Shown one piece after another: positions 1,889 to 15,561 of a stretch of DNA of 64,000 bases; positions within the stretch are counted from its first letter, which is position 1; the number at the start of each line of letters is the position of its first letter. Source of the DNA: an uncultured Bacteroidales bacterium (GTDB taxonomy: Bacteria > Bacteroidota > Bacteroidia > Bacteroidales > UBA932); assembly GCA_949297365.1 (NCBI GenBank), contig CASFSL010000040.1:182900-246899 (forward strand), in the 5' to 3' direction. The translations under genes were made by a program, and so were the position numbers. The notes under the pieces are model-generated. The model made no database searches. It worked only from the letters and a program-made list of their open reading frames with translations, and was not told the DNA's origin.

Positions 1889-5113
<3,225 letters not shown>

Positions 5114-6357: not shown

Positions 6358-6443
6358 CCCCGCTTCCTTAGTTACCATTGTACCCACCATTCCAAGGAAG
6401 ATGCAGTCCTGACCATCCGGGACGCCCCTTTACTTTTGCAGAT

Positions 6444-6484
6444 GCGGATACTTATTTTCAAAGATTCTGGCGATGTTGAGGTGA
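6444..6484 (+). pseudogene. 3' remnant of a second gene II/X replication initiator
   Basis: Restoring one T in a T-run makes this read DTYFSKILAMLR-stop, nearly identical to the last residues of the intact initiator (DTYFSEILAMLR-stop at 8416). Nothing recognisable as the rest of the gene remains to the left, so this is the tail of a second copy truncated at about 6444, with a one-base deletion. It abuts the left direct repeat. Confidence 0.7.
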
Positions 6485-6850
6485 AAAACCGAGGGGATGG
6501 GATAGAATGCCGTTGTCGGCACGGGTCAAATCAATCAGTCAGTTCCCTAATACCGTCTGAAATGACTTCTTACCCGCTCAATCTTGCCGAACCTTATGCG
6601 CTTGTACGTCTTGATTCTGACAAGCCTGACAATCTCCACCCTGATGGAAACTATCACGAAACAGTAATATGTTCTATTGTTCATTTAAGGTTATTTACTG
6701 TGTGGTGTAAGAACAGTTGACCTCTCGTTCAAGTACCTCCCCTCGGTAGCAGTTCAAAAAAAGCAGACACCCATTAGGGATAGATGTCCGCCTTAATTTG
6801 CCACAGTAAATCTTAAATGACTTTGCAAAGGTATGGAATAATTCCTGAAT
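6444..6850 (+). repeat. direct repeat copy A: rep tail plus structured downstream region
   Basis: About 400 bp resembling 8375-8776 with clear but imperfect identity. Shared landmarks are AACCGAGGGGAT, CCCTAATACCG, TGACTTCTTACCCG, TTGATTCTGACAAGCCTGAC, CCTCCCCTCGGTA and TTAGGGATAGATG. Pairing arms are 6488-6497 with 6738-6747, 6681-6705 with 6801-6820, and a weaker hairpin 6763-6791. This copy looks older: a small hairpin that is perfect in copy B (AATCTCC/GGAGATT) is eroded here. No protein is supported in it; the open frame across it matches only non-coding repeat sequence. Confidence 0.85.
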
Positions 6851-6935
6851 GACAAGAAAAATCAGTCAAGGCATCTGCATTATTTTACGGAATGTGTAAA
6901 ACATCAAACAATGTAAACTTGCAGTCAGAAAATAG

Positions 6936-7049
6936 GTGCCCGGAAGCGGACTATTCTCGAAAGAATTCTTAGCTGATTTGGACAGGATTTGGGCGTTGAG
7001 GTATTACATTCCTGACCCCAATAGACCGAATTACTCGGAGAATATCTGA
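6936..7049 (+). pseudogene. 37-codon fragment ending in NRPNYSENI
   Basis: Directly after an in-frame TAG, a GTG-initiated frame reads a coding-like peptide (KEFLADLDRIWALRYYIP, then DPNRPNYSENI) and stops at 7047-7049. Residue composition looks like the C-terminus of a real protein rather than random frame. I do not recognise the family. It may be debris of an older gene or a very small gene; there is no clear ribosome-binding site. Confidence 0.3.
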
Positions 7050-7256
7050 GGGGGATGATAGCATGTTTTTTCTGCTATTTGTTATCCGCCTTAATTTCAT
7101 TAAAAAAACAGGCGGTATAATATACATGAGACTGTTGCTTGCGATGATTTTATCTGCGATTTCAGGCTGGAAAATCGGCTACTATGCTTGACTTTTTTGG
7201 TAATGCTACTATATATTGTTGAAAGGACAGGCAACAAAGAGCCTGATGTTAGAATT
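7050..7256. other. non-coding spacer upstream of the NUMOD3/rep pair
   Basis: The spacer holds two hairpins: ATAGCA/TGCTAT around 7059-7079 and CCGCC/GGCGG at 7086-7115. The 13-mer TCCGCCTTAATTT at 7085-7097 is an exact repeat of 6787-6799 in copy A. TTGACT and TATATA at 16-nt spacing lie near 7190-7216, but this is a generic sigma70-like match, not the host-type promoter. Otherwise nothing is seen. Confidence 0.5.
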
Positions 7257-7457
7257 ATGCAACAGCCATATAAGAGACAGTACCGGGAATTGGATGACGA
7301 GACGAAACAGAAGATATCAGCGGCGAACAGAAATCGGCCCAAATCCGACATTCACAGACAGCGTATCAGCCAGTCCATGAAGAAATACTGGGAACAGATA
7401 CCGCATCGTCCTTCCAGCGGAGATGTCACCACTTATCAAGGGGAAGAAAACGGGTAA
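7257..7457 (+). CDS. small NUMOD3-like DNA-binding protein
   Basis: From ATG 7257 this gives 66 residues starting MQQPYKRQYRELDDETKQ. The segment ETKQKISAANRNRPKSDIHR followed by QRISQSMKKYW has the two-turn K-I-S-x-A/S repeat of NUMOD3, the DNA-binding module usually attached to GIY-YIG or HNH homing nucleases. No nuclease domain is present. A longer frame from 7188 exists, but its extra N-terminus is hydrophobic and unlike the family, so the internal start is preferred. It ends 30 nt before the initiator gene and is probably co-transcribed. Inference: it may bind the element's own DNA, for example the structured repeat or origin. It could alternatively be a fragment of a homing nuclease. 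Confidence 0.55.
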   Translation: MQQPYKRQYRELDDETKQKISAANRNRPKSDIHRQRISQSMKKYWEQIPHRPSSGDVTTYQGEENG

Positions 7458-7486
7458 AATAATGCAGAATAAGTTATATGAAATAG

Positions 7487-8416
7487 GTGCAGACATTCGA
7501 CAGGCTCAAAATCGTAGCAGCCATAGATGCCATAGATGTGGTAGATGAGAGTGTGTTTGCGAAAACACTTGTAAACGGCAATGTAGTATCGATGAAGTAT
7601 TATCGGGAAGTGCCAACCAAACTGATGATAAAGGTAGACTATGCCAGTGGAGAAGTGGTTGTGGAGTTCACTGGTAAGATACTCGGTCACAATTACCCGC
7701 ATCTGATATCTATGGCGAACATAGAAGAGTGTTTCATAAACATAGAATCACTGGGCTTCTGTCGGTTTGATATGGATTTGCTCATGCGCTCGGAAGTGGT
7801 GTCGTGTGATGTTACCAAGGATGTGCAGTGTTCCGATGTCAGAAAGGTGCAGTCATATATCAGGAGCCATATATCAAATTACAACAAATACATGTGCCGT
7901 GCATTGAAGAACGGCAATGTCGTGCTGGAGAAGAATGTGACAACCAGGAAAAACAAGAAGCGTATGACTATATATGATAAAGAGCAGGAGATGAAAAAGT
8001 CGGACAATACCAGATTTATGCAGAGGAACGGACTGACGGATGAATTTGTAGGGAAATGTCGGTTTGAGATAAACCTCAACTCGAAAGAACAGATACGGAA
8101 TGCCCTGCATATCGAAGACACCAATCTATTGACGGTGCTTAATTCAGAGACGAATCCCATATTGGAATTCATGGATGAGGCGGTCTGCGGCAGTCAAGGG
8201 CAGAAAGCGTGTTCCGATTGGAAGTCATATCAGCGTTATCTCGTTTTGAAGGACTGCGATTTCGATTTAGAAAAGGTCGAAGCGAAGGTCAGAAGTCTGT
8301 ACAAGCGCGGGACAAAGATATCCGATGTAATGAGACCGTACCGCGAAGCATACAGCCAGTTGATGACGGAAGGTGAGGATACTTATTTTTCAGAGATACT
8401 TGCAATGTTGAGGTGA
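7487..8416 (+). CDS. replication initiator, phage/plasmid gene II/X (pII-like) family
   Basis: Predicted rolling-circle initiator that nicks origin DNA through a tyrosine. The 309 residues line up by eye with filamentous phage f1 pII: ILGHN (67-70) against its QGHN; FCRFDMDL (91-98) against SRIDATF; KKRMTIYDKEQEM with Tyr163 where f1 has catalytic Tyr197; CRFEINL (191-197) against VRFEARI. The start is GTG directly behind a TAG, and FDRLKIVAAID is a plausible beginning; another short frame (7462 on) overlaps the start. No coat, Zot-like ATPase or assembly genes are nearby, so this is a minimal element, satellite or relic, not a full inovirus. The AT-rich composition differs from the flanks. 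The family call is good; activity is unknown. Confidence 0.8.
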   Translation: MQTFDRLKIVAAIDAIDVVDESVFAKTLVNGNVVSMKYYREVPTKLMIKVDYASGEVVVEFTGKILGHNYPHLISMANIEECFINIESLGFCRFDMDLLMRSEVVSCDVTKDVQCSDVRKVQSYIRSHISNYNKYMCRALKNGNVVLEKNVTTRKNKKRMTIYDKEQEMKKSDNTRFMQRNGLTDEFVGKCRFEINLNSKEQIRNALHIEDTNLLTVLNSETNPILEFMDEAVCGSQGQKACSDWKSYQRYLVLKDCDFDLEKVEAKVRSLYKRGTKISDVMRPYREAYSQLMTEGEDTYFSEILAMLR

Positions 8417-8776
8417 AAAACCGAGGGGATAGAGTGGAAGTTATCGGTATGGAATCAATCAGTCGGTACCCTAATACCGCCTGAAATGACTTCTTACCCG
8501 TTCAATCTTGCCGAATCTCTTGCGTTTGTACGCCTTGATTCTGACAAGCCTGACAATCTCCGCCCTAATGGAGATTATGACGAGTTTGCAGTATTTTCTC
8601 TTTGTCATTGGAAGATTTATTAATTATAGGTGTGAGAATAACGGCTCCTCGCATTGGCACCTCCCCTCGGTAAATCTTCAACATAAAGGCAGACATCCAT
8701 TTAGGGATAGATGCCTGCCTCGACTTCTATAATCATCTTCCAATGATTATTGCAAATGTAAGAACAATTTCTGAAA
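8375..8776 (+). repeat. direct repeat copy B: rep 3' end plus structured downstream region
   Basis: The better-preserved partner of 6444-6850, covering the last codons of the intact initiator and about 360 bp behind it. The spacing of all landmarks is nearly the same in both copies. The divergence between copies argues against a recent tandem duplication and for two related elements having inserted at, or accreted into, one place. Confidence 0.85.
8417..8776 (+). ncRNA. candidate structured RNA or single-strand origin region behind rep
   Basis: Pairing elements seen in copy B: ACCGAGGGGA (8420-8429) with TCCCCTCGGT (8662-8671); left arm 8605-8629 (TCATTGGAAGAT...ATTATAG) with right arm 8728-8747; GGCAGACATC (8688-8697) with GATGCCTGCC (8711-8720); AATCTCC (8555-8561) with GGAGATT (8570-8576); and CGGTA/TACCG near 8464-8479. 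The first two helices are interleaved, so they form a pseudoknot or exclude each other. Copy A keeps the same arms with different bases. In filamentous phages a hairpin-rich intergenic region holds the origins and packaging signal, so a DNA role is at least as likely as an RNA role. No known RNA family is recognised. Confidence 0.5.
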
Positions 8777-8838
8777 AAACAAAGACAGAGTTTCTCGTAA
8801 TGTGTCAAAAATCCAATTGCATCAATTTAACATTAGAA

Positions 8839-8880
8839 AAAGGTGATACACCCATGCCGGGATGTGTCACCTTAACTTTT
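8839..8880 (-). terminator. terminator of the barrel-protein operon
   Basis: AAGGTGA...TCACCTT forms a strong hairpin with an inner CCC/GGG. On the minus strand it is followed by a run of Ts, placing it about 35 nt after the 8910 stop codon. The rest of 8777-8909 holds nothing else recognisable. Confidence 0.75.
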
Positions 8881-8909
8881 TATATTAAAGAGCCATGTCC
8901 TGCCGGATG

Positions 8910-9782
8910 TCAGAAGACATAGGACAGGGTGACGAAGAAGGGCTTGTTGAGTTTGGCCGGGGTGGACTTTGAGATATTAATCAGTCCCCAGTCACCGCCC
9001 ATCATGAGTTGGACGCAGTTGTATCTGACACCGATGCCGACGCCCCACAGGAGATTGAACCGCCTGAGGTCTGAGTCCTCCCCGTACTCGTATAGGGTCT
9101 CTTTCATGTCTCCGGCAGATACGGTTGTCTTGTATTCCACGGACACATCAAAGCTCGGGCCCGTGTACGCGAAGACACTGAGGTCTTTCAGTATCTCGTA
9201 GCGGTACTGCACCCTCAGGGGGAATGACACCGTATGCTCTGAAATCTCAACGGAGTACAGCGCGTCGGAGGGGGATACATATGTAGACCATTCATAGTAC
9301 ACTCCTCCCTGCAGCCCTATGCCGTACTTGAACTCGGGTGCCCAGTAGAGTCCGGCTTTGAGAGAGGGGTTGGTCTTTATGGCCCCGTCTTCGTCATCGC
9401 CAATCCACGGCCCCTTATAGCTGGGAGACACCAGTCTCTTGGCGGAATAGCCGATGGACAGACCCACTATGCGCTGCTTGGATTTAGGGGTAAGCCTTTC
9501 CTTCCACCTGTCGCTGTCGGCATTATATGTCTCCGTGACGGGAATGTCCTCAAAGGTCTGCACATCCCCGTTGCCGTACATTATGGATGCTATCTCCGCG
9601 ACGCTGAGCCGGAAGACCTGCCCGCTGCCGTCGCTGGCCAGCGTGTATGCAATCTCCGTGGAGGTGACTTCAACTATTCTTGCGTCAATCCTCTCCGAGT
9701 TCCTGAGGATGATGATGTCCTGCGCTGCCACGGACAGCGATGCGGTCAGGACAAGTGCGAGTGATAAAATCAATTTTCTCAT
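8910..9782 (-). CDS. outer-membrane beta-barrel protein (paralogue 1)
   Basis: A 290-residue exported protein: signal peptide ending SVAAQ near residue 21, then a conserved N-terminal segment DIIILRNSERIDARIVEV...TEIAY that recurs in many Bacteroidota barrel proteins. A linker and a porin-like barrel with alternating aromatic strands follow, ending FFVTLSYVF (a terminal Phe, as expected for outer-membrane insertion). It is the last gene of a three-gene minus-strand operon, 24 nt behind its paralogue. Function is unknown; no substrate can be inferred. Confidence 0.75.
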   Translation of the reverse strand: MRKLILSLALVLTASLSVAAQDIIILRNSERIDARIVEVTSTEIAYTLASDGSGQVFRLSVAEIASIMYGNGDVQTFEDIPVTETYNADSDRWKERLTPKSKQRIVGLSIGYSAKRLVSPSYKGPWIGDDEDGAIKTNPSLKAGLYWAPEFKYGIGLQGGVYYEWSTYVSPSDALYSVEISEHTVSFPLRVQYRYEILKDLSVFAYTGPSFDVSVEYKTTVSAGDMKETLYEYGEDSDLRRFNLLWGVGIGVRYNCVQLMMGGDWGLINISKSTPAKLNKPFFVTLSYVF

Positions 9783-9806
9783 CGGTATATCTTGTTATTG
9801 TGGTTG

Positions 9807-10700
9807 TCAGAACAAATATGTGAGCGATATGAAGAAGGGCTTGTTGACTTTGACTGCATCCCCTTTATAGTAGTTGGTCAGTCCCCAGTCGCCGCCCATC
9901 ATCAACTGGAGGCCTTTCCACCTGACTCCGGCACCCACACCCCAGAGCATCTGAAAGCGGTTGAGGGAGGAGTCTCCCTTGTAGTAGTCATCATTCTCCC
10001 CTCCGTAATTGGACAGGTAGGCCAGATGAATGTCAAAGCTGGGGCCGGTGTACAGGAACACGCTCAGGTCACGGATAATCTCATATCGGTACTGGACTCT
10101 GAGTGGAATGGACAGTGTATGTTCCGTGTTACTGTAGCTTTTCTCAACCTCGTTGTAGTAATCCTCATAATCTGTATAGGTTCCATTGTAAGCGGCCAGC
10201 TCGTAGTACAGTCCTGTCTGTATGCCGATACCGTACTTGAACTCGGGTGCCCAGTAGAAACCTACCATAAGGGCTGGGCTGGTCTTTCCAATCTCTTCAT
10301 TGAGCATGGAAACTTTCAACGGGCCTAGAGCCATCTGTTTGCTGGTGTATCCAATGGAAATACCGAAGGGCCTTTTCCTGCCCTGCGGAGTCGGATTGAA
10401 CTTCAGCTTGCCAGCCCCGTCTTCATTGCCGGAACTGACCGTGCCCTGTCCTTTCCGAGGCTCCGCGTTGAACGCCTGCACGTCCCCGTTGGCGTAGATG
10501 ACGGAGGATACCTCCGAGATGTCAAGGCGGAAAGTGGGGCCGTCCGTATAGTCTGCCTTCTTGTAGGCGATTTCCGTTGAGGAAATCTCTACAATCTTCG
10601 CCTCAATCTTCTCGGAATTTTTGAGGATGATGATGTCCTGAGCCAGTGCGCTCAGTGATGCCGCCAGCACCAGTGCCAGCGATAAAAGCAATCGTTTCAT
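9807..10700 (-). CDS. outer-membrane beta-barrel protein (paralogue 2)
   Basis: At 297 residues this has the same architecture as its neighbour: a nearly identical signal peptide (LSLALVLAASLSALAQ), the DIIILKNSEKIEAKIVEISSTE module, and a barrel ending FFISLTYLF. The shared blocks YWAPEFKYGIG, LRVQYRYEI and LMMGGDWGL show a tandem duplication. The loops differ most, which is usual for surface-exposed barrels. It lies 27 nt behind the lipoprotein gene. Function unknown. Confidence 0.75.
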   Translation of the reverse strand: MKRLLLSLALVLAASLSALAQDIIILKNSEKIEAKIVEISSTEIAYKKADYTDGPTFRLDISEVSSVIYANGDVQAFNAEPRKGQGTVSSGNEDGAGKLKFNPTPQGRKRPFGISIGYTSKQMALGPLKVSMLNEEIGKTSPALMVGFYWAPEFKYGIGIQTGLYYELAAYNGTYTDYEDYYNEVEKSYSNTEHTLSIPLRVQYRYEIIRDLSVFLYTGPSFDIHLAYLSNYGGENDDYYKGDSSLNRFQMLWGVGAGVRWKGLQLMMGGDWGLTNYYKGDAVKVNKPFFISLTYLF

Positions 10701-10727
10701 AGTATAGTATTTAATGATTGATGTTAG

Positions 10728-11282
10728 TTAGTTCCCTGTCTTTTTGAATATCATTACACCTGTGAGTTCATGTATGTTTCCGTCATAGCCGCTTAATGTG
10801 CTGATGTCTTCCGGGTAATGCACATCATAATAGTCATCGTTAGAGAAAAAGTAGCCAAGGACTTCAAATGTTATGACTTCCATGCATAGGCATCCGTCAT
10901 CGGAGAAATATAAACTGCCGAGCGATTCTCCTTCAAAACTGTATAAAGTTGTTTTTCCATTCTCAAAACCCCATCTAATCAGACCTTCATAGTGATAGGG
11001 AGAAACAGCGGTGCCGTCACTGTAAAAACGCATATAATGAAACGGGGAAGCTGTAGGAATACTTCCTCCATCCCAGTCTCCGTCTTTCGTATAACAGAAT
11101 AGACTGCTTCCATCTATTGCTATTTCCCGACCATCATAGTAAAAGGCGTAGTTGTATCTTGTCCATTCTCCGACAATATAATTCCTGTCATACCTGCCTC
11201 CGATTGTGCCTCCATGTTCGCAGGAGACAGTTGTGCCCATACAAAGCAGGAGCACTGCTGCGTAATAGATAAACTTTTTCAT
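10728..11282 (-). CDS. lipoprotein of unknown function
   Basis: The 184 residues start with a lipoprotein signal (MKKFIYYAAVLLLCMGTTVSC, lipid cysteine at residue 21). The mature part is rich in Tyr, Asp and Gly (EWTRYNYAFYYDG) with a repeating W/F-x-S-D-G pattern. It resembles small lipocalin-like Bacteroidota lipoproteins, but I cannot name a family. First gene of the operon with the two barrel proteins, so it may be their surface or periplasmic partner (inference). Confidence 0.65.
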   Translation of the reverse strand: MKKFIYYAAVLLLCMGTTVSCEHGGTIGGRYDRNYIVGEWTRYNYAFYYDGREIAIDGSSLFCYTKDGDWDGGSIPTASPFHYMRFYSDGTAVSPYHYEGLIRWGFENGKTTLYSFEGESLGSLYFSDDGCLCMEVITFEVLGYFFSNDDYYDVHYPEDISTLSGYDGNIHELTGVMIFKKTGN

Positions 11283-11558
11283 TCAATGAAGTTTAAGCCT
11301 TCCGGGCCCCGGGGAAGAGTTTGCATAAAAAGAAAGTGTGAGGCCGATTCCGTTTATCAAGTAGAAGGTTGTGGAAGAACCTAAGCAAAAATAAACGAGA
11401 CCCAATACCCCACACTCGTATAGATATGAGGTACTGTCGGGTATAGAACTCCCTGACCGCATAGCCTACACAAGAATGAGTGCTGTCCGTTGTCCTTTTG
11501 CTTTTGAAAACTTCCACATTTTCTACTTAGGACGTAACGAAAACACTTCCGTATGTAA
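11283..11558 (-). other. long non-coding leader before the lipoprotein operon
   Basis: If the box at 11579-11586 is the promoter, the operon carries a leader of about 290 nt. ATACCC and GGGGTAT segments about 30 nt apart can pair. Short frames exist but lack starts or coding character, so none is called. No known riboswitch is recognised. Confidence 0.4.
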
Positions 11559-11586
11559 TGCCGGACTGTCCGGCACTGCAAAGATA
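11559..11586 (-). promoter_or_regulatory. promoter box with a palindrome at the predicted start site
   Basis: On the minus strand TATCTTTG (11579-11586) is followed 3 nt later by a perfect inverted repeat, TGCCGGA/TCCGGCA around a 3-nt centre (11559-11575). The expected start site (about 11572) lies inside it, so it could be an operator or a 5' stabilising hairpin. Confidence 0.55.
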
Positions 11587-11657
11587 GTTATTTCCCGTTA
11601 ACGGAGAGCACTCATTGAGGTATTGACCCGCAAATTTAGGATTTATTGCTTTCGCAG

Positions 11658-11771
11658 ATGAAATGGCGGGGCCGGATGGCAGACTTCCTCCAGGTCAGCA
11701 CGATTGGGCCGGAGTTCCCGGCCATGAACAACAAGGGGAACACTGGGGCAACGGCCATCAGTTTTTGGTAG
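11658..11771 (+). CDS. possible 37-residue ORF, unsupported family
   Basis: ATG 11658 opens a short frame (MKWRGRMADFLQVSTIGPEF...) that ends SFW just before the hairpin at 11765-11787. A box-like TTGCTTTCG precedes it. The composition is peptide-like, but there is no homology I recognise; it may be the tail of a decayed gene at the island edge. Low confidence. Confidence 0.25.
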   Translation: MKWRGRMADFLQVSTIGPEFPAMNNKGNTGATAISFW

Positions 11772-11787
11772 AAAAATTACCAATTTT
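11765..11787. terminator. hairpin between the small ORF and the XRE gene
   Basis: TTGGTA and TACCAA separated by 7 nt, followed by TTTT and preceded by TTT. It can terminate the minus-strand XRE transcript (stop at 11802) and any plus-strand transcript. Confidence 0.55.
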
Positions 11788-11801
11788 GGATAGCGGGATT
11801 G

Positions 11802-12116
11802 TCAGTCTGAAAGCAGTCCGAGGAGGCTTTCCATGTCCTCCCTGCTGCGTATCCTATGCACCTTGCCGTCAATCTCAACGAATCCGTCTATGGCATGGCC
11901 GTCCCCTGAGTCATTGCCATATATCAATGTGGAGAGGGGTACTTTGAGGGTGTCGGCTGCTTTCATGAGGGTCAGAACATTCTTTGTTTCGAACAGCTTC
12001 AGAACATTCTGCCGGGCAATGCCCATTTGTTCAGCGAATTGGGCCTTGTTCATGCCCGCGTTCCTCAGCATCTCCTCAGCGTGAGTCTCAAAATAGGTTT
12101 TCTCGGGTATGTTCAT
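11802..12116 (-). CDS. XRE-family helix-turn-helix regulator
   Basis: The internal start gives 104 residues, MNIPEKTYFETHAEEMLRNA and on. NKAQFAEQMGIARQNVLKLF is a clear HTH, followed by TLMKAADTLKVPLSTLIYG, the usual XRE fifth-helix region. An upstream extension to 12161 would run across a TATATTTG promoter box (12139-12146), so the shorter start is chosen. The short C-terminal tail (IDGFVEIDGKVHRIRSREDM) is common in Bacteroidales mobile-element regulators. Divergent from the 12243 operon with promoters about 40 bp apart; most simply it represses that operon and itself (inference). Confidence 0.75.
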   Translation of the reverse strand: MNIPEKTYFETHAEEMLRNAGMNKAQFAEQMGIARQNVLKLFETKNVLTLMKAADTLKVPLSTLIYGNDSGDGHAIDGFVEIDGKVHRIRSREDMESLLGLLSD

Positions 12117-12138
12117 ATGTAACCGAATTAAAGTAATG

Positions 12139-12146
12139 CAAATATA
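12139..12146 (-). promoter_or_regulatory. promoter box of the XRE gene
   Basis: TATATTTG on the minus strand, 23 nt before the preferred XRE start. No convincing -33 partner is seen. Confidence 0.5.
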
Positions 12147-12187
12147 TTCTAAAATTATCAAGAATAGATAAAATAGTATTACAAAAA

Positions 12188-12219
12188 TTTGGATAAGTAA
12201 TTATAATATATTATCTTTG
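12188..12219 (+). promoter_or_regulatory. consensus promoter of the island operon
   Basis: TTTG (12188-12191), 20 nt, TATCTTTG (12212-12219): a textbook Bacteroidota promoter, 23 nt before the first start codon. The palindrome ATAATATATTAT overlaps the -7 box and could be the XRE operator. Confidence 0.75.
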
Positions 12220-12242
12220 CAATACAAATAAAGAAAGAAGAT

Positions 12243-12512
12243 ATGGCACAGGACAAGATACAGAAAGCATTGAAAATGATAGACAGTTTTGATTGGTTTT
12301 GGAGCATGGCCGATGAGTGGAGATACGACAGTGCGAAGGCAGGCATGAGGAGATTCGTGACTCTCGTAAGCACCATTGAGGATGAGGATGTCAGAAAGGC
12401 ACTGCGCGGTCTGTGGACATTAAGATACGAGGAGGCAAGCAGCATCATCAGCGGGCACGATACCGATGTGTCGGTAAAACGAAGCGAGTATATGGCTGTC
12501 CTTGCCGCTTAA
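12243..12512 (+). CDS. hypothetical protein of the mobile island
   Basis: The 89 residues have no signal or membrane segment and a strongly helical, charged composition (FDWFWSMADEWRYDSAKAG). First gene behind a consensus promoter, with an AAAGAAAGAAG purine tract before the ATG. I do not recognise a family. Position suggests an accessory or regulatory role in the island. Confidence 0.6.
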   Translation: MAQDKIQKALKMIDSFDWFWSMADEWRYDSAKAGMRRFVTLVSTIEDEDVRKALRGLWTLRYEEASSIISGHDTDVSVKRSEYMAVLAA

Positions 12513-12542
12513 TCCAATGGTTGAACAATTAAACATAGGAAT

Positions 12543-12875
12543 ATGAGCACAATGATTATCACGGGCGACAATCTGACCATCACAAGAGTGGCCGTCATCG
12601 CGAAACGAACATCATCCGACCTGATGGCCGGGGCAAAGGCCATGATGGTGGAGTCGTTGAAGCGACAGATGAAGAACGGAATAGCGCATTTCGTCTTTAT
12701 GAAAAAGGACGGAACATTGAGGGAGGCGTGGGGCACCACCAATCGCAGACTTGCCCAAAAGCATGTCAACGGTAACGGTGACAGCCGTGAGTTTTACTGC
12801 ACCACCGCCTACTTTGATGTGGAAAGGGGTGCATGGCGGTCGTTCCGTTGGGAGAACATAGTCGCGGTCTATTGA
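12543..12875 (+). CDS. SH3-like beta-barrel protein, DUF2693 type
   Basis: In 110 residues the blocks FVFMKKDGTLREAWGTTN and YFDVERGAWRSFRWENIVAV match the DUF2693 'SH3 beta-barrel fold' proteins that recur in Bacteroidales mobile elements. It follows the previous gene by 30 nt and precedes the resolvase by 15 nt, so it is probably in the same operon. The molecular role of the family is not known to me. Confidence 0.65.
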   Translation: MSTMIITGDNLTITRVAVIAKRTSSDLMAGAKAMMVESLKRQMKNGIAHFVFMKKDGTLREAWGTTNRRLAQKHVNGNGDSREFYCTTAYFDVERGAWRSFRWENIVAVY

Positions 12876-12890
12876 TTAGAGGCAGAGGAA

Positions 12891-13532
12891 ATGGACAAGG
12901 TGGTTATACTGGCCCGGGTCAGTACGGATAAACAGGAATATGAGCGGCAACTTGTGGAGTTGAGGGATTACTGCGCCAAGGTCGGCTGGGAGGTGGTCAG
13001 GGAGTTCGCCAACAAGGTGTCCGGGGCTAAGCGAAATGATGAGAGGCCGGAGATAGTGGAGCTGATAGAATTCGTTAAGTCCAACGATATACGGAGAGTT
13101 GTTTGTCTTGAAATCAGCAGGTTGGGCCGAAATACGCTGGAGGCGTTGAAGGTCATACAGAGCCTCAACGAGCACCATGTGAGCCTGTATGTCAAGAACT
13201 ACAATTTGGAGACCCTGACCCCGGACGGCAATGTGAATCCTGTAGCATCCCTAATAACAACCATCTTATTGGAGGTCGCGCAGATGGAACGGCTGACCAT
13301 TAAAGAAAGGATGACAAGTGGTCGCAATCAGTACATTGCCAAGTGCCGGGCGCAGGGCATCAAAATGGGCAGGCCCTCTACATACAAGAAATCCGAAAGC
13401 GTATATCGCGAGGAGTACGCGAAGGAAATCTCGTTACTTAGGAAAGGAATCAGCCTTAGAAACATTCATGCTATCACTGGAACATCCATAAACACCCTCA
13501 GAAAACTATGTCAAATCCTCGGGTCAATCTGA
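12891..13532 (+). CDS. small serine recombinase (resolvase/invertase)
   Basis: The 213 residues have a resolvase catalytic domain: ARVSTDKQ with nucleophile Ser11, then LEISRLGRNTLEALKVI and QMERLTIKERM. The long E-helix region is followed by GRPSTYKKSE and a C-terminal HTH (LLRKGISLRNIHAITGTSIN). Likely resolves, inverts or excises DNA. It is the third gene behind the 12188 promoter; a separate large recombinase follows. No inversion-type crossover repeats were identified. Confidence 0.85.
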   Translation: MDKVVILARVSTDKQEYERQLVELRDYCAKVGWEVVREFANKVSGAKRNDERPEIVELIEFVKSNDIRRVVCLEISRLGRNTLEALKVIQSLNEHHVSLYVKNYNLETLTPDGNVNPVASLITTILLEVAQMERLTIKERMTSGRNQYIAKCRAQGIKMGRPSTYKKSESVYREEYAKEISLLRKGISLRNIHAITGTSINTLRKLCQILGSI

Positions 13533-13562
13533 ACGCAAAGCGGATTATAAGAACGCATTGAA

Positions 13563-13594
13563 TTTGTTTTTTAAAATTAAACCATGTATGTTTG
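13563..13594 (+). promoter_or_regulatory. consensus promoter before the large recombinase unit
   Basis: TTTG (13563-13566), 20 nt, TATGTTTG (13587-13594). The predicted transcript has an about 210-nt leader containing a perfect 8-bp hairpin, CCTTTGCC/GGCAAAGG (13744-13768), and a 7-codon frame inside it (MNIGKGS). The rest of 13595-13807 holds no supported gene. Confidence 0.7.
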
Positions 13595-13807
13595 CGCAGA
13601 AGGTGAGGAAACAGCACAGCACCTTGCCAGAACTCCCGGCTATAATAAGTCCGTTTAGGACATCAAGAAAACAGTCAGCGTCAAGACATCAGTAAAACAA
13701 GGTAACATACCGACAGGGCCAAGCCGTCCTGGGCGTACAAGTTCCTTTGCCATGAACATCGGCAAAGGCAGCTGAAATGGCGAATAATGCGATAAGACTA
13801 CCATGAA

Positions 13808-13987
13808 ATGCTGTCGCTGGAGCGGTGTGCCGCCATACTGAAAAACTATGATTGCAAGACAGACAACGGTACACTGAAAGAGTTGAGGGATTACCTGTAT
13901 CAGTTGGCCTCGATACAGGTGATGAATGAAAGTGATGAGGCCGACATTAACCCTATTACTAACCATGAACCAATCGATTTGAAATGA
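13808..13987 (+). CDS. 59-residue protein coupled to the large recombinase
   Basis: The frame starts MLSLERCAAILKNYDCKTDN and ends NHEPIDLK. Its stop shares ATGA (13984-13987) with the recombinase start, a four-base overlap typical of translational coupling. The KELRDYLYQLASIQV stretch predicts a helix. I do not recognise the family; a small recombination directionality or accessory factor is possible, but this is inference from position only. Confidence 0.6.
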   Translation: MLSLERCAAILKNYDCKTDNGTLKELRDYLYQLASIQVMNESDEADINPITNHEPIDLK

Positions 13988-15561
13988 TAAATGTTATTCT
14001 ATACACGAGGGTCAGCACGGACGAGCAGGCTGAGTATGGGCTGGGACTGGAAGCTCAGGAAAGATTGCTGAGGGCACACTGCGCCAACCATAATTACAAC
14101 ATAGTGGGCGATGAACAGCCGTATAAGGAGGATTACTCCGCCAAGCACCATGACCTTAGACGGCCAGAGATGAAAAGAGTGTATGAATACTGCCGGAGAC
14201 ATAAGGGCAAGGTGCAGAAACTCCTGTTCCTCCGCTGGGACAGGTTTGCCCGTAACACAGAATTCGCATTTACATACAAGCGTAAGTTCTATGATGAGCT
14301 GGGAGTTGAAATCAATGCCATAGAATCTCCCATAGATTTCACCATGCCGGACTGGTCACTGCTGTTCGCCATGCAGTGCGGTAACGCGCACACGGAAGAC
14401 AATAAAATCGCAGCAAGGACAAAGGACGGCAACCACGAACACCTGATGAGAGGCGAGTGGGTCGGCAAGGCCCCTCGGGGATACAGAAATGTGAGGGTCG
14501 GGAAGCACGAATGTTGGATAGAGGTAGACAAGACCAAGGCTCCGGCCATCAAAAAGGCGTTTGAGGAGGTCGCAAAGGGACTGGAGAATCCTGCTCTAAT
14601 CAGGAAGAAGTGGTGTCCTTTCGTTCCTAAGTCATCTTTCTTTGATATGCTCAGGAATAAGTTCTATATGGGAATCATACGCGTTCCGGCATACAAGGGC
14701 GACCCGGAACAATTTGTAGAAGGCAAGCACGAAGCCCTCATCAGCCGGGAGACATTCTACAAAGTTCAGGATGTTCTGGAGGGCAAACGCCGCCGGACAC
14801 CAAAACTTGCAAAGAGGAATATCAATCCAGAGCTGTATCTGAGGAAATTCTTAGTATGCCCTATCTGCGGCCATCCTCTGACTGGTGCGACAACGACAGG
14901 GCACGGAGGAAAGTACACATACTATTTCTGCAATCACGACCACAAGCACCTCAATGTCCGGGCAGAAAAGGTCAATGACGGCTTCGCCCATTATACTTCG
15001 GGGTTAAAACCTAACAGAGCGGTATTGGAACTCTATAACGAGATACTGCATGATATCAGAGGAGAGAAGATTAGAGAGAACAGGGCAAATGCCGACAAAC
15101 TCAGTGCAGAGATGCAGAACATCCAAAGCAGAGCGGATAGGGTCAGGGACTTGTTCTATGACGGCCAGATATCCAAAGCAGAAAAAGACCAGTCTTTGGA
15201 GAGATTAAACAAACAGATTGACAACCTCAAAGAAAGAATAGAGGCATTGAGACTGAGCAGGGATTTGAAAGTTAAAGACAAACTGGATTATTCCATCAAT
15301 ATTATCGGCAACCTCGGGGATTTCTTCAGGTCAGCAAAGCCGGAAGTCAAAGTCCTGCTGTTAGGTTCGATATTTCCCGAAAAAATCGAATTTGACGGAA
15401 AAAATTATCGAACCTGCTCGTACAACAGGATGCTCGACATCATCTATCAAGAGACCAACAGGTTACGCGGGGATATAAAAAAAGAATCTTCCGAAAAAAC
15501 GGAAGATTCCGACTGGGTGCCCGGAACAGGACTCGAACCTGCACAGCCTTGCGGCCACTAG
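13984..15561 (+). CDS. large serine recombinase (site-specific integrase)
   Basis: The 525 residues start with a serine catalytic domain (YTRVSTDEQAEYGLGLEAQ, nucleophile Ser11; FLRWDRFARN). The recombinase domain follows (GKAPRGYRN), then a zinc ribbon with CPICG and a later Cys-His segment (YYFCNHDHKH), then a coiled coil (about 370-450). This architecture integrates and excises elements. The last about 25 codons read through the tRNA terminator hairpin and into tRNA-Leu, ending LEPAQPCGH: these residues are tRNA antisense, so the natural C-terminus was probably altered by integration. Confidence 0.88.
   Translation: MINVILYTRVSTDEQAEYGLGLEAQERLLRAHCANHNYNIVGDEQPYKEDYSAKHHDLRRPEMKRVYEYCRRHKGKVQKLLFLRWDRFARNTEFAFTYKRKFYDELGVEINAIESPIDFTMPDWSLLFAMQCGNAHTEDNKIAARTKDGNHEHLMRGEWVGKAPRGYRNVRVGKHECWIEVDKTKAPAIKKAFEEVAKGLENPALIRKKWCPFVPKSSFFDMLRNKFYMGIIRVPAYKGDPEQFVEGKHEALISRETFYKVQDVLEGKRRRTPKLAKRNINPELYLRKFLVCPICGHPLTGATTTGHGGKYTYYFCNHDHKHLNVRAEKVNDGFAHYTSGLKPNRAVLELYNEILHDIRGEKIRENRANADKLSAEMQNIQSRADRVRDLFYDGQISKAEKDQSLERLNKQIDNLKERIEALRLSRDLKVKDKLDYSINIIGNLGDFFRSAKPEVKVLLLGSIFPEKIEFDGKNYRTCSYNRMLDIIYQETNRLRGDIKKESSEKTEDSDWVPGTGLEPAQPCGH
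15477..15509 (-). terminator. tRNA-Leu terminator
   Basis: GAATCTTCCG and CGGAAGATTC pair perfectly around a 6-nt loop, with seven Ts following on the minus strand. It lies 9 nt past the tRNA 3' end and within the recombinase reading frame, marking the inner limit of the chromosomal flank. Confidence 0.85.

What the first reader, a model, noticed from the sequence alone, without database searches (positions are those of the whole stretch)
6444..8776. Minimal pII/NUMOD3 element with two copies of its structured flank
Seen: an intact gene II/X-type initiator and a NUMOD3-like small protein, followed by a 400-bp region that is repeated behind a broken tail of a second initiator. No coat, Zot-like or integrase gene is present. 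Known: filamentous phage pII nicks a hairpin-rich intergenic origin. Inference: this is a very small rolling-circle element, satellite or plasmid relic that has been captured twice at one place in a Bacteroidales chromosome. I know of no described element with exactly this gene pair and repeated region.
Basis: partly seen in the sequence, partly recalled or inferred. Interest (0 to 1): 0.8.

Follow-up and report, generated by a model that had tools for sequence, protein, structure and literature searches.

The report
Integrase gene split by its insertion
A small mobile element in a gut bacterium sits at the end of a transfer-RNA gene with the last 34 codons of what is likely its own integrase gene stranded 8.6 kb away at its other end, so the inserted element and its predicted free circle would make integrases with different tails.

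Summary
The initiator (Rep) and NUMOD3 genes are real, but they are not a minimal element. They are the left end of an 8.6-kb island (window 6935-15526) inserted at the 3' end of tRNA-Leu(CAG). A sister genome has the empty site; another species has the same island. The repeated 400 bp is mainly a convergent gene for a small peptide. Its first copy, with a Rep tail, lies outside the left attachment site: a relic of an earlier insertion there.

The unexpected part: just inside the left site is a conserved coding stretch without an ATG (6936-7049) that continues the integrase frame through the shared core. Among sister elements at Leu, Arg and His tRNAs, frames agree in 14 of 15 loci (12 of 13 distinct), disagree in none, and changes fall mostly at third codon positions. 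Fragments with body end and tail in one open frame occur in other genomes. So integration likely splits the gene and swaps the enzyme's C-terminus. A 2021 review (passages read) calls self-disrupting integrases exclusively archaeal; those are tyrosine enzymes. The functional effect is untested.

The parts
6440..6487 (+). 3' end of a lost Rep gene (about 15 codons), relic of an earlier insertion
   Evidence: matches 8371-8418 behind the intact Rep; lies outside attL
6485..6880 (-). first copy of the small convergent gene (relic); ORF 6547-6684, 45 aa
6935..6945 (.). attL core GGTGCCCGGAA
   Evidence: shared with attR 15516-15526
6936..7049 (+). orphan integrase tail: 37 codons (3 in the core, 34 beyond it) and stop, no ATG
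   Evidence: in frame with the integrase across the core; conserved in sister elements
7188..7457 (+). NUMOD3-like small protein
   Evidence: PF07460 E 7e-4; a similar ORF stands before Rep in 17 of 20 loci looked at (judged by eye)
7487..8416 (+). Rep, rolling-circle initiator of Rep_trans/G2P-like fold
8417..8795 (-). second copy of the small convergent gene; ORF 8471-8608, 45 aa
8796..8885 (+). TGTGTCA-type repeats and terminator-like hairpin behind Rep
   Evidence: found directly behind the Rep stop in L025, L026, L028, L030, L031, L033-L036
8910..11282 (-). cargo: two outer-membrane beta-barrel proteins (8910-9782, 9807-10700) and a lipoprotein-like ORF (10728-11282)
   Evidence: PF13568 in the first two, none in the third
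11802..12161 (-). HTH regulator candidate
   Evidence: PF13443 20.6 bits against a cut-off of 22
12243..12875 (+). two small ORFs (89 and 110 aa), the second a WYL_2 protein
   Evidence: PF10902 E 1.6e-25
12891..13532 (+). small serine resolvase
   Evidence: PF00239 104 bits
13984..15561 (+). large serine integrase, 525 aa as inserted; last 11 codons beyond the core are tRNA sequence
   Evidence: PF00239, PF07508, PF13408 above cut-offs; stop inside the tRNA
15516..15526 (.). attR core GGTGCCCGGAA
15514..15602 (-). tRNA-Leu(CAG), the target

Best explanation
The region is the left end of an 8.6-kb element inserted at the 3' end of tRNA-Leu(CAG), and its large serine integrase gene is likely split by that insertion: the last 34 codons lie at the opposite end, in frame with the integrase across the attachment core. 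In the predicted free circle the core sits inside the gene, so the enzyme would have 548 residues and end in a conserved tail (window: LFSKEFLADLDRIWALRYYIPDPNRPNYSENI). After insertion the frame runs into the tRNA instead and ends after 11 other codons (525 residues). I infer that the full-length form carries out integration and that the tail swap is a built-in one-way switch: the resident enzyme is weaker or inactive in further recombination, and excision would need a full-length integrase supplied by an incoming or tandem relative. The NUMOD3/Rep module would replicate the excised circle by the rolling-circle route (inferred from family and fold). The small convergent gene behind Rep is a module that often outlives the element beside the tRNA. 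Shown: island boundaries, tail conservation, frame agreement, joined fragments in other genomes. Inferred: the circle, the effect on direction, replication.
For: Empty site in G185 and the same island with the same gene order in G098 (its contig has the length of C. pullistercoris DXAT01000059.1). Core GGTGCCCGGAA at 6935 and 15516, 8581 bp apart. Tail in frame in the window and G098. Tail profile finds it near the left end of sister elements. With the core required at the tRNA 3' end, frames agree in 14 of 15 loci, disagree in 0, one has no core; 12 of 13 distinct records. Tail changes: 14 nt but 2 of 25 residues between window and G201, codon positions 3/0/11. A second integrase group, 23-25% identical to this one, has its own conserved tail at the left end with third-position changes. 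Integrase stop inside the tRNA in 22 of 25 loci, past it in 3. Body end and tail in one open frame in G169 (113 aa), G333 (78 aa) and G119, and at tandem-type junctions in L044 and L029.
Against: No circle was seen: no joined integrase for this element among the proteins found (1 of 10 candidates, the 525-aa inserted form), no relative in viral contigs, and 10 plasmid records with under 60% identity, none reaching the tail. With the core left free, the longest shared run is in frame in only 12 of 19 loci, one of these a poly-A run; the restriction to the tRNA 3' end was chosen after seeing that. Five of the 14 agreeing cores are only 5 nt long, so chance runs are possible there. The joined frames in other genomes are fragments: no full integrase was found on the stretches fetched from G169, G333, G119 and G316. 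11 of 30 integrase loci lack this tail at E 0.01. No experiment shows that the two forms differ in activity.
Confidence: 0.7

Rival explanations
1. The split is real and works as an isoform switch in the other direction: the short, tRNA-tailed form is the excision enzyme and the long form the integration enzyme, so that no separate directionality factor is needed.
For: All three Pfam domains of the integrase stay in the inserted form; only the last residues change. The close relative G185 lacks the island, which fits mobility.
Against: Relics and tandem-type junctions at the same tRNAs suggest that insertions stay; absence in G185 may equally mean never gained.
Confidence: 0.25
2. The tail stretch is conserved as DNA, an integrase-binding attP arm, and its reading frame is incidental.
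For: The tail's start (TTCTCGAAC) resembles the T-arm part of the tRNA target and gives out-of-frame matches.
Against: Changes prefer third codon positions, e.g. 3/0/11 and, in the second group, 3/3/16; frames agree in 14 of 15 loci.
Confidence: 0.1
3. The tail is a separate small gene or the remnant of a duplicated integrase, not part of this integrase.
For: It ends in its own stop, and fragment arrays of it exist in G169.
Against: It has no ATG in the window, starts at the core, and is in frame with the integrase at other tRNAs too.
Confidence: 0.06
4. One reading: a very small rolling-circle element of pII and NUMOD3 with one structured flank, captured twice.
For: Rep of rolling-circle type and a repeat of about 400 bp.
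Against: Attachment sites, empty site and integrase place the pair inside an 8.6-kb island; the repeat is mainly a gene and occurs without Rep beside other tRNAs.
Confidence: 0.03

Closest known systems
Archaeal 'suicidal' integrases (SSV1, pTN3, pT26-2)
   Same: The recombination site lies inside the integrase gene, and integration separates its parts (PMC8371274, passages read).
   Different: Those are tyrosine recombinases whose catalytic part is cut off; here it is a bacterial serine integrase that keeps its catalytic and DNA-binding domains and exchanges only its last residues. That review says such enzymes are found exclusively in Archaea.
Integration-dependent immunity of mycobacteriophage BPs
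   Same: attP lies inside a gene and integration shortens the C-terminus of its product (33 residues; PMC4557955, outline and abstract read).
   Different: There the gene is the repressor and the lost end is a degradation tag; here it is the integrase itself.
Integrative mobilizable elements with Rep_trans/MobT initiators
   Same: Small integrated elements with a rolling-circle initiator, some at tRNA genes (PMC5704250, passages read).
   Different: The serine-integrase examples discussed there disrupt dispensable genes, and the Bacteroides IMEs listed use tyrosine integrases where a type is given, and MobP relaxases. Transfer of the present element is untested.
Filamentous phage pII / G2P initiators
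   Same: Fold-level resemblance of Rep to viral models including an Inoviridae G2P; Phage_CRI in 7 of 19 relatives, best E 6.7e-4.
   Different: No coat or Zot-like gene was recognised on the island.

Membership tests
Large serine recombinase (integrase) | Resolvase, Recombinase and zinc-ribbon domains | tested here: met
   PF00239 79.0/23.3, PF07508 36.1/21.1, PF13408 26.5/25.3 bits/cut-off
Integrated element at a tRNA gene | att cores on both sides and an empty site in a relative | tested here: met
Self-splitting ('suicidal') integrase | attachment core inside the integrase reading frame of the circle | tested here: met
   frame continuity computed, 14 of 15 loci; the circle itself was not observed
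Self-splitting ('suicidal') integrase | tyrosine recombinase with the catalytic part separated on integration (as in Archaea) | tested here: not met
   serine recombinase domains stay together in the inserted form
Integrative mobilizable element | mobilization by a co-resident conjugative element | not testable with these tools
   needs transfer assays
Rep_trans (PF02486) initiators | Pfam gathering score | tested here: not met
   window Rep 17.1 bits against 29.6; 12 of 19 relatives hit below or near it, best E 3.1e-4
Rep_trans (PF02486) initiators | fold of a pT181-type Rep | tested here: inconclusive
Inovirus | coat/assembly genes beside the initiator | tested here: inconclusive
   none recognised among the island ORFs scanned, but not every ORF was scanned

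The most novel reading that the evidence does not exclude
Bacterial serine integrases that rewrite their own C-terminus when they integrate: the attachment site inside the gene is a built-in direction switch, full-length in the circle and tRNA-tailed in the chromosome, present in two distantly related integrase groups of one Bacteroidales element family; a tandem neighbour can hand the full-length tail back.
Probability: 0.4. Interest if true: 0.9.

Novelty: new variant of a known kind. Interest (0 to 1): 0.78.

Why it matters
How serine integrases choose between integration and excision is usually explained by a separate directionality factor. Here the insertion itself would change the enzyme. 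It would extend self-splitting integrases from archaeal tyrosine enzymes to bacterial serine enzymes, against the statement in PMC8371274 (passages read) that they are exclusively archaeal, and it offers a natural pair of isoforms for a direct test. In the listings of my paper searches (titles and abstract starts of 6-25 papers each) I saw no bacterial serine case; these cover open-licence PMC papers only.

Tried and rejected
The repeat as a structured RNA or a mobile MITE: my first reading, dropped when the minus-strand frame, its conserved ATG and the codon-position pattern appeared. RNA families: none. Rep in plasmid and phage records and viral contigs: no relative. The small peptide in phage records and a 24-base motif of the repeat in viral contigs: none. 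PDB by sequence: three chance-level matches. Foldseek against PDB: nothing at E 0.001. NCBIfam for Rep: only chance-level hits. Defence families in eight proteins: none. Joined integrase in the protein database: none. A freely chosen core gives 12 of 19 in frame; I then required the core at the tRNA 3' end because tRNA-like letters inside the tail made longer out-of-frame runs. That rule was set.

Full report
What is there. The window lies in a genome close to Candidatus Coprenecus (inferred from the named relatives). Rep (7487-8416) and the NUMOD3-like ORF (7188-7457) are intact, and a region of about 400 bp behind Rep recurs upstream behind a Rep tail. Rep has 616 relatives at E up to 0.001, of which 120 were listed. 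It occurs once in its own genome; the repeat has three long copies there, one of them alone on another contig.

The repeat is mainly a gene. 80 of 398 family genomes match it at E 0.001, many only over its two conserved end motifs. Of 33 copies looked at, 23 had both end motifs and were aligned; the left edge AAAACCGAGGGG is sharp. The minus strand holds a small ORF. In 28 of 34 copies it is recognisable with its ATG (score 80 or more against the window's first copy); its length varies, since seven of these end after 38-43 residues and one runs on to 78. One copy (L090) was left out of the next step. Among the remaining 24 distinct sequences, minor letters by codon position are 126/120/171 and median dN/dS is 0.38 over 268 usable pairs; for the 20 not directly attached to a Rep it is 0.38 over 183 pairs. 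Against this reading: one plus-strand frame, which shares the codon boundaries, is also open in 23 of 24. The peptide matches phrog_21154, of unknown function (E 1.7e-7 and 7.7e-8). In L025, L026, L028, L030, L031 and L033-L036 the Rep stop is followed directly by TGTATCA-type repeats and a terminator-like hairpin, so the gene is an optional module. 17 of 30 fetched copies have a tRNA within about 1.5 kb; several are the same locus in related genomes.

The pair belongs to an island. attL is at 6935 and attR at 15516, core GGTGCCCGGAA, distance 8581 bp. The first repeat copy and its Rep tail lie outside attL: a relic of an earlier insertion at this tRNA. G310 shows the same order - lone copy, tail, NUMOD3, Rep, second copy - and G256 the same up to Rep.

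A family. Of 23 loci with Rep from the named genome collection, 14 also show a large serine integrase ending at a tRNA (Leu, Met, His, Arg, Asn, Pro), 12 of them with a small resolvase as well; the rest lack one of these on the stretch held, some because the contig ends. A NUMOD3-like ORF stands before Rep in 17 of 20 loci examined (by eye). Elements delimited by cores measure about 5.0 to 8.6 kb. I examined 35 stretches for the integrase; 30 had one. In the 25 with a tRNA near its stop, the stop is inside the tRNA in 22 and past it in 3.

The split. Reading the integrase frame through the core into the element's left end gives 37 codons in the window and in G098, 34 of them beyond the core triplets. 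A profile of this tail finds it near the left end of many sister elements. Of the 30 integrase loci, 19 have the tail at E 0.01 or better and 15 of these have a called tRNA; the four without (G201, G311, G339, G385) were left out of the next test. With the core required at the tRNA 3' end, the frames agree in 14, disagree in none, and one (G278) has no core of 5 nt. L028/G195 and L030/G281 are the same records, which leaves 12 of 13; the window and G098 share one site and are not independent. Five of the 14 cores are only 5 nt; the five of 10 nt or more all agree. With the core left free, 12 of 19 agree. In G201, left out above, a shared stretch GTACCCGGAGCCGG also joins the frames (read by eye). 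The tail evolves like protein: 14 nt but 2 of 25 residues differ between window and G201, codon positions 3/0/11, and more distant pairs show the same tendency. Integrases at tRNA-Met, 23-25% identical to the window's, have another conserved left-end tail with third-position changes (L044, L029, L024, L043); there the shared core is 12 nt in L044 but only 4 nt in L029 and L024. In 398 family genomes 53 matched the 114-residue junction piece, often as separate body and tail several kilobases apart on one contig; single matches across the junction occur in G169 (two places, one with a stop), G333 and G119, and with stops in G316, G384 and G173. G169 holds a 113-codon open frame that joins body end and tail, and L044 and L029 show junctions of tandem type that join one element's integrase end to the next element's tail. 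These are fragments, not whole genes.

How it likely works. Shown: the parts of the frame stand at opposite ends of the inserted element and agree across the att core. Inferred: the circle carries the full gene; integration replaces the tail by tRNA-encoded residues; this changes the enzyme. I commit to a one-way switch, because relics and tandem junctions gather at the same tRNAs, but a short form specialised for excision is a serious rival. Rep is a rolling-circle initiator by fold and would replicate the circle; no origin was tested.

Literature. [quoted passage not shown] PMC4557955 (outline and abstract) describes a phage repressor shortened by integration. PMC5704250 (passages) reviews integrative mobilizable elements. 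PMC12884075 (passages) treats serine and tyrosine integrases of islands, many in tRNA genes. Other papers were seen only in search listings. The notion of Bacteroidales promoter boxes in the repeat, and of directionality factors, is recalled.

'Last 37 codons' is now 34, since three lie in the shared core. No other odds were changed.

Noticed in passing
L061, L062, L065, L068, L071, L072, L073, L089: The small convergent gene also stands directly behind an HD-hydrolase-like gene in Coprenecus-like and other Rikenellaceae genomes, often near tRNA-Leu(CAA); it may be an old insertion kept by both lineages.
   Followed up: partly
L098 (G201), about 16735: The integrase end reaches the shared core in frame, but the DNA beyond it is not a recognisable tRNA: a secondary site or a damaged target.
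   Followed up: no
L131 (G169:C6), about 2290-3900: Three stretches with the integrase tail lie within 1.6 kb, one joined to an integrase end: an array of left-end fragments at one place.
   Followed up: no
L038, L039, L042: Phocaeicola and another Bacteroidales genome carry Rep directly followed by a small resolvase and no large integrase on the stretch held.
   Followed up: no
L086, L088, L085 (G311, G385, G333): Elements with the integrase tail directly followed by the small convergent gene and a different 280-aa ORF further on, without the NUMOD3/Rep pair seen there.
   Followed up: no
window 6780-6860 and 8690-8770: The repeat holds a hairpin followed (minus strand) by a run of T, and two complementary GAGGGG/CCCCTC stretches about 260 nt apart; a leader attenuator is possible.
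   Followed up: no
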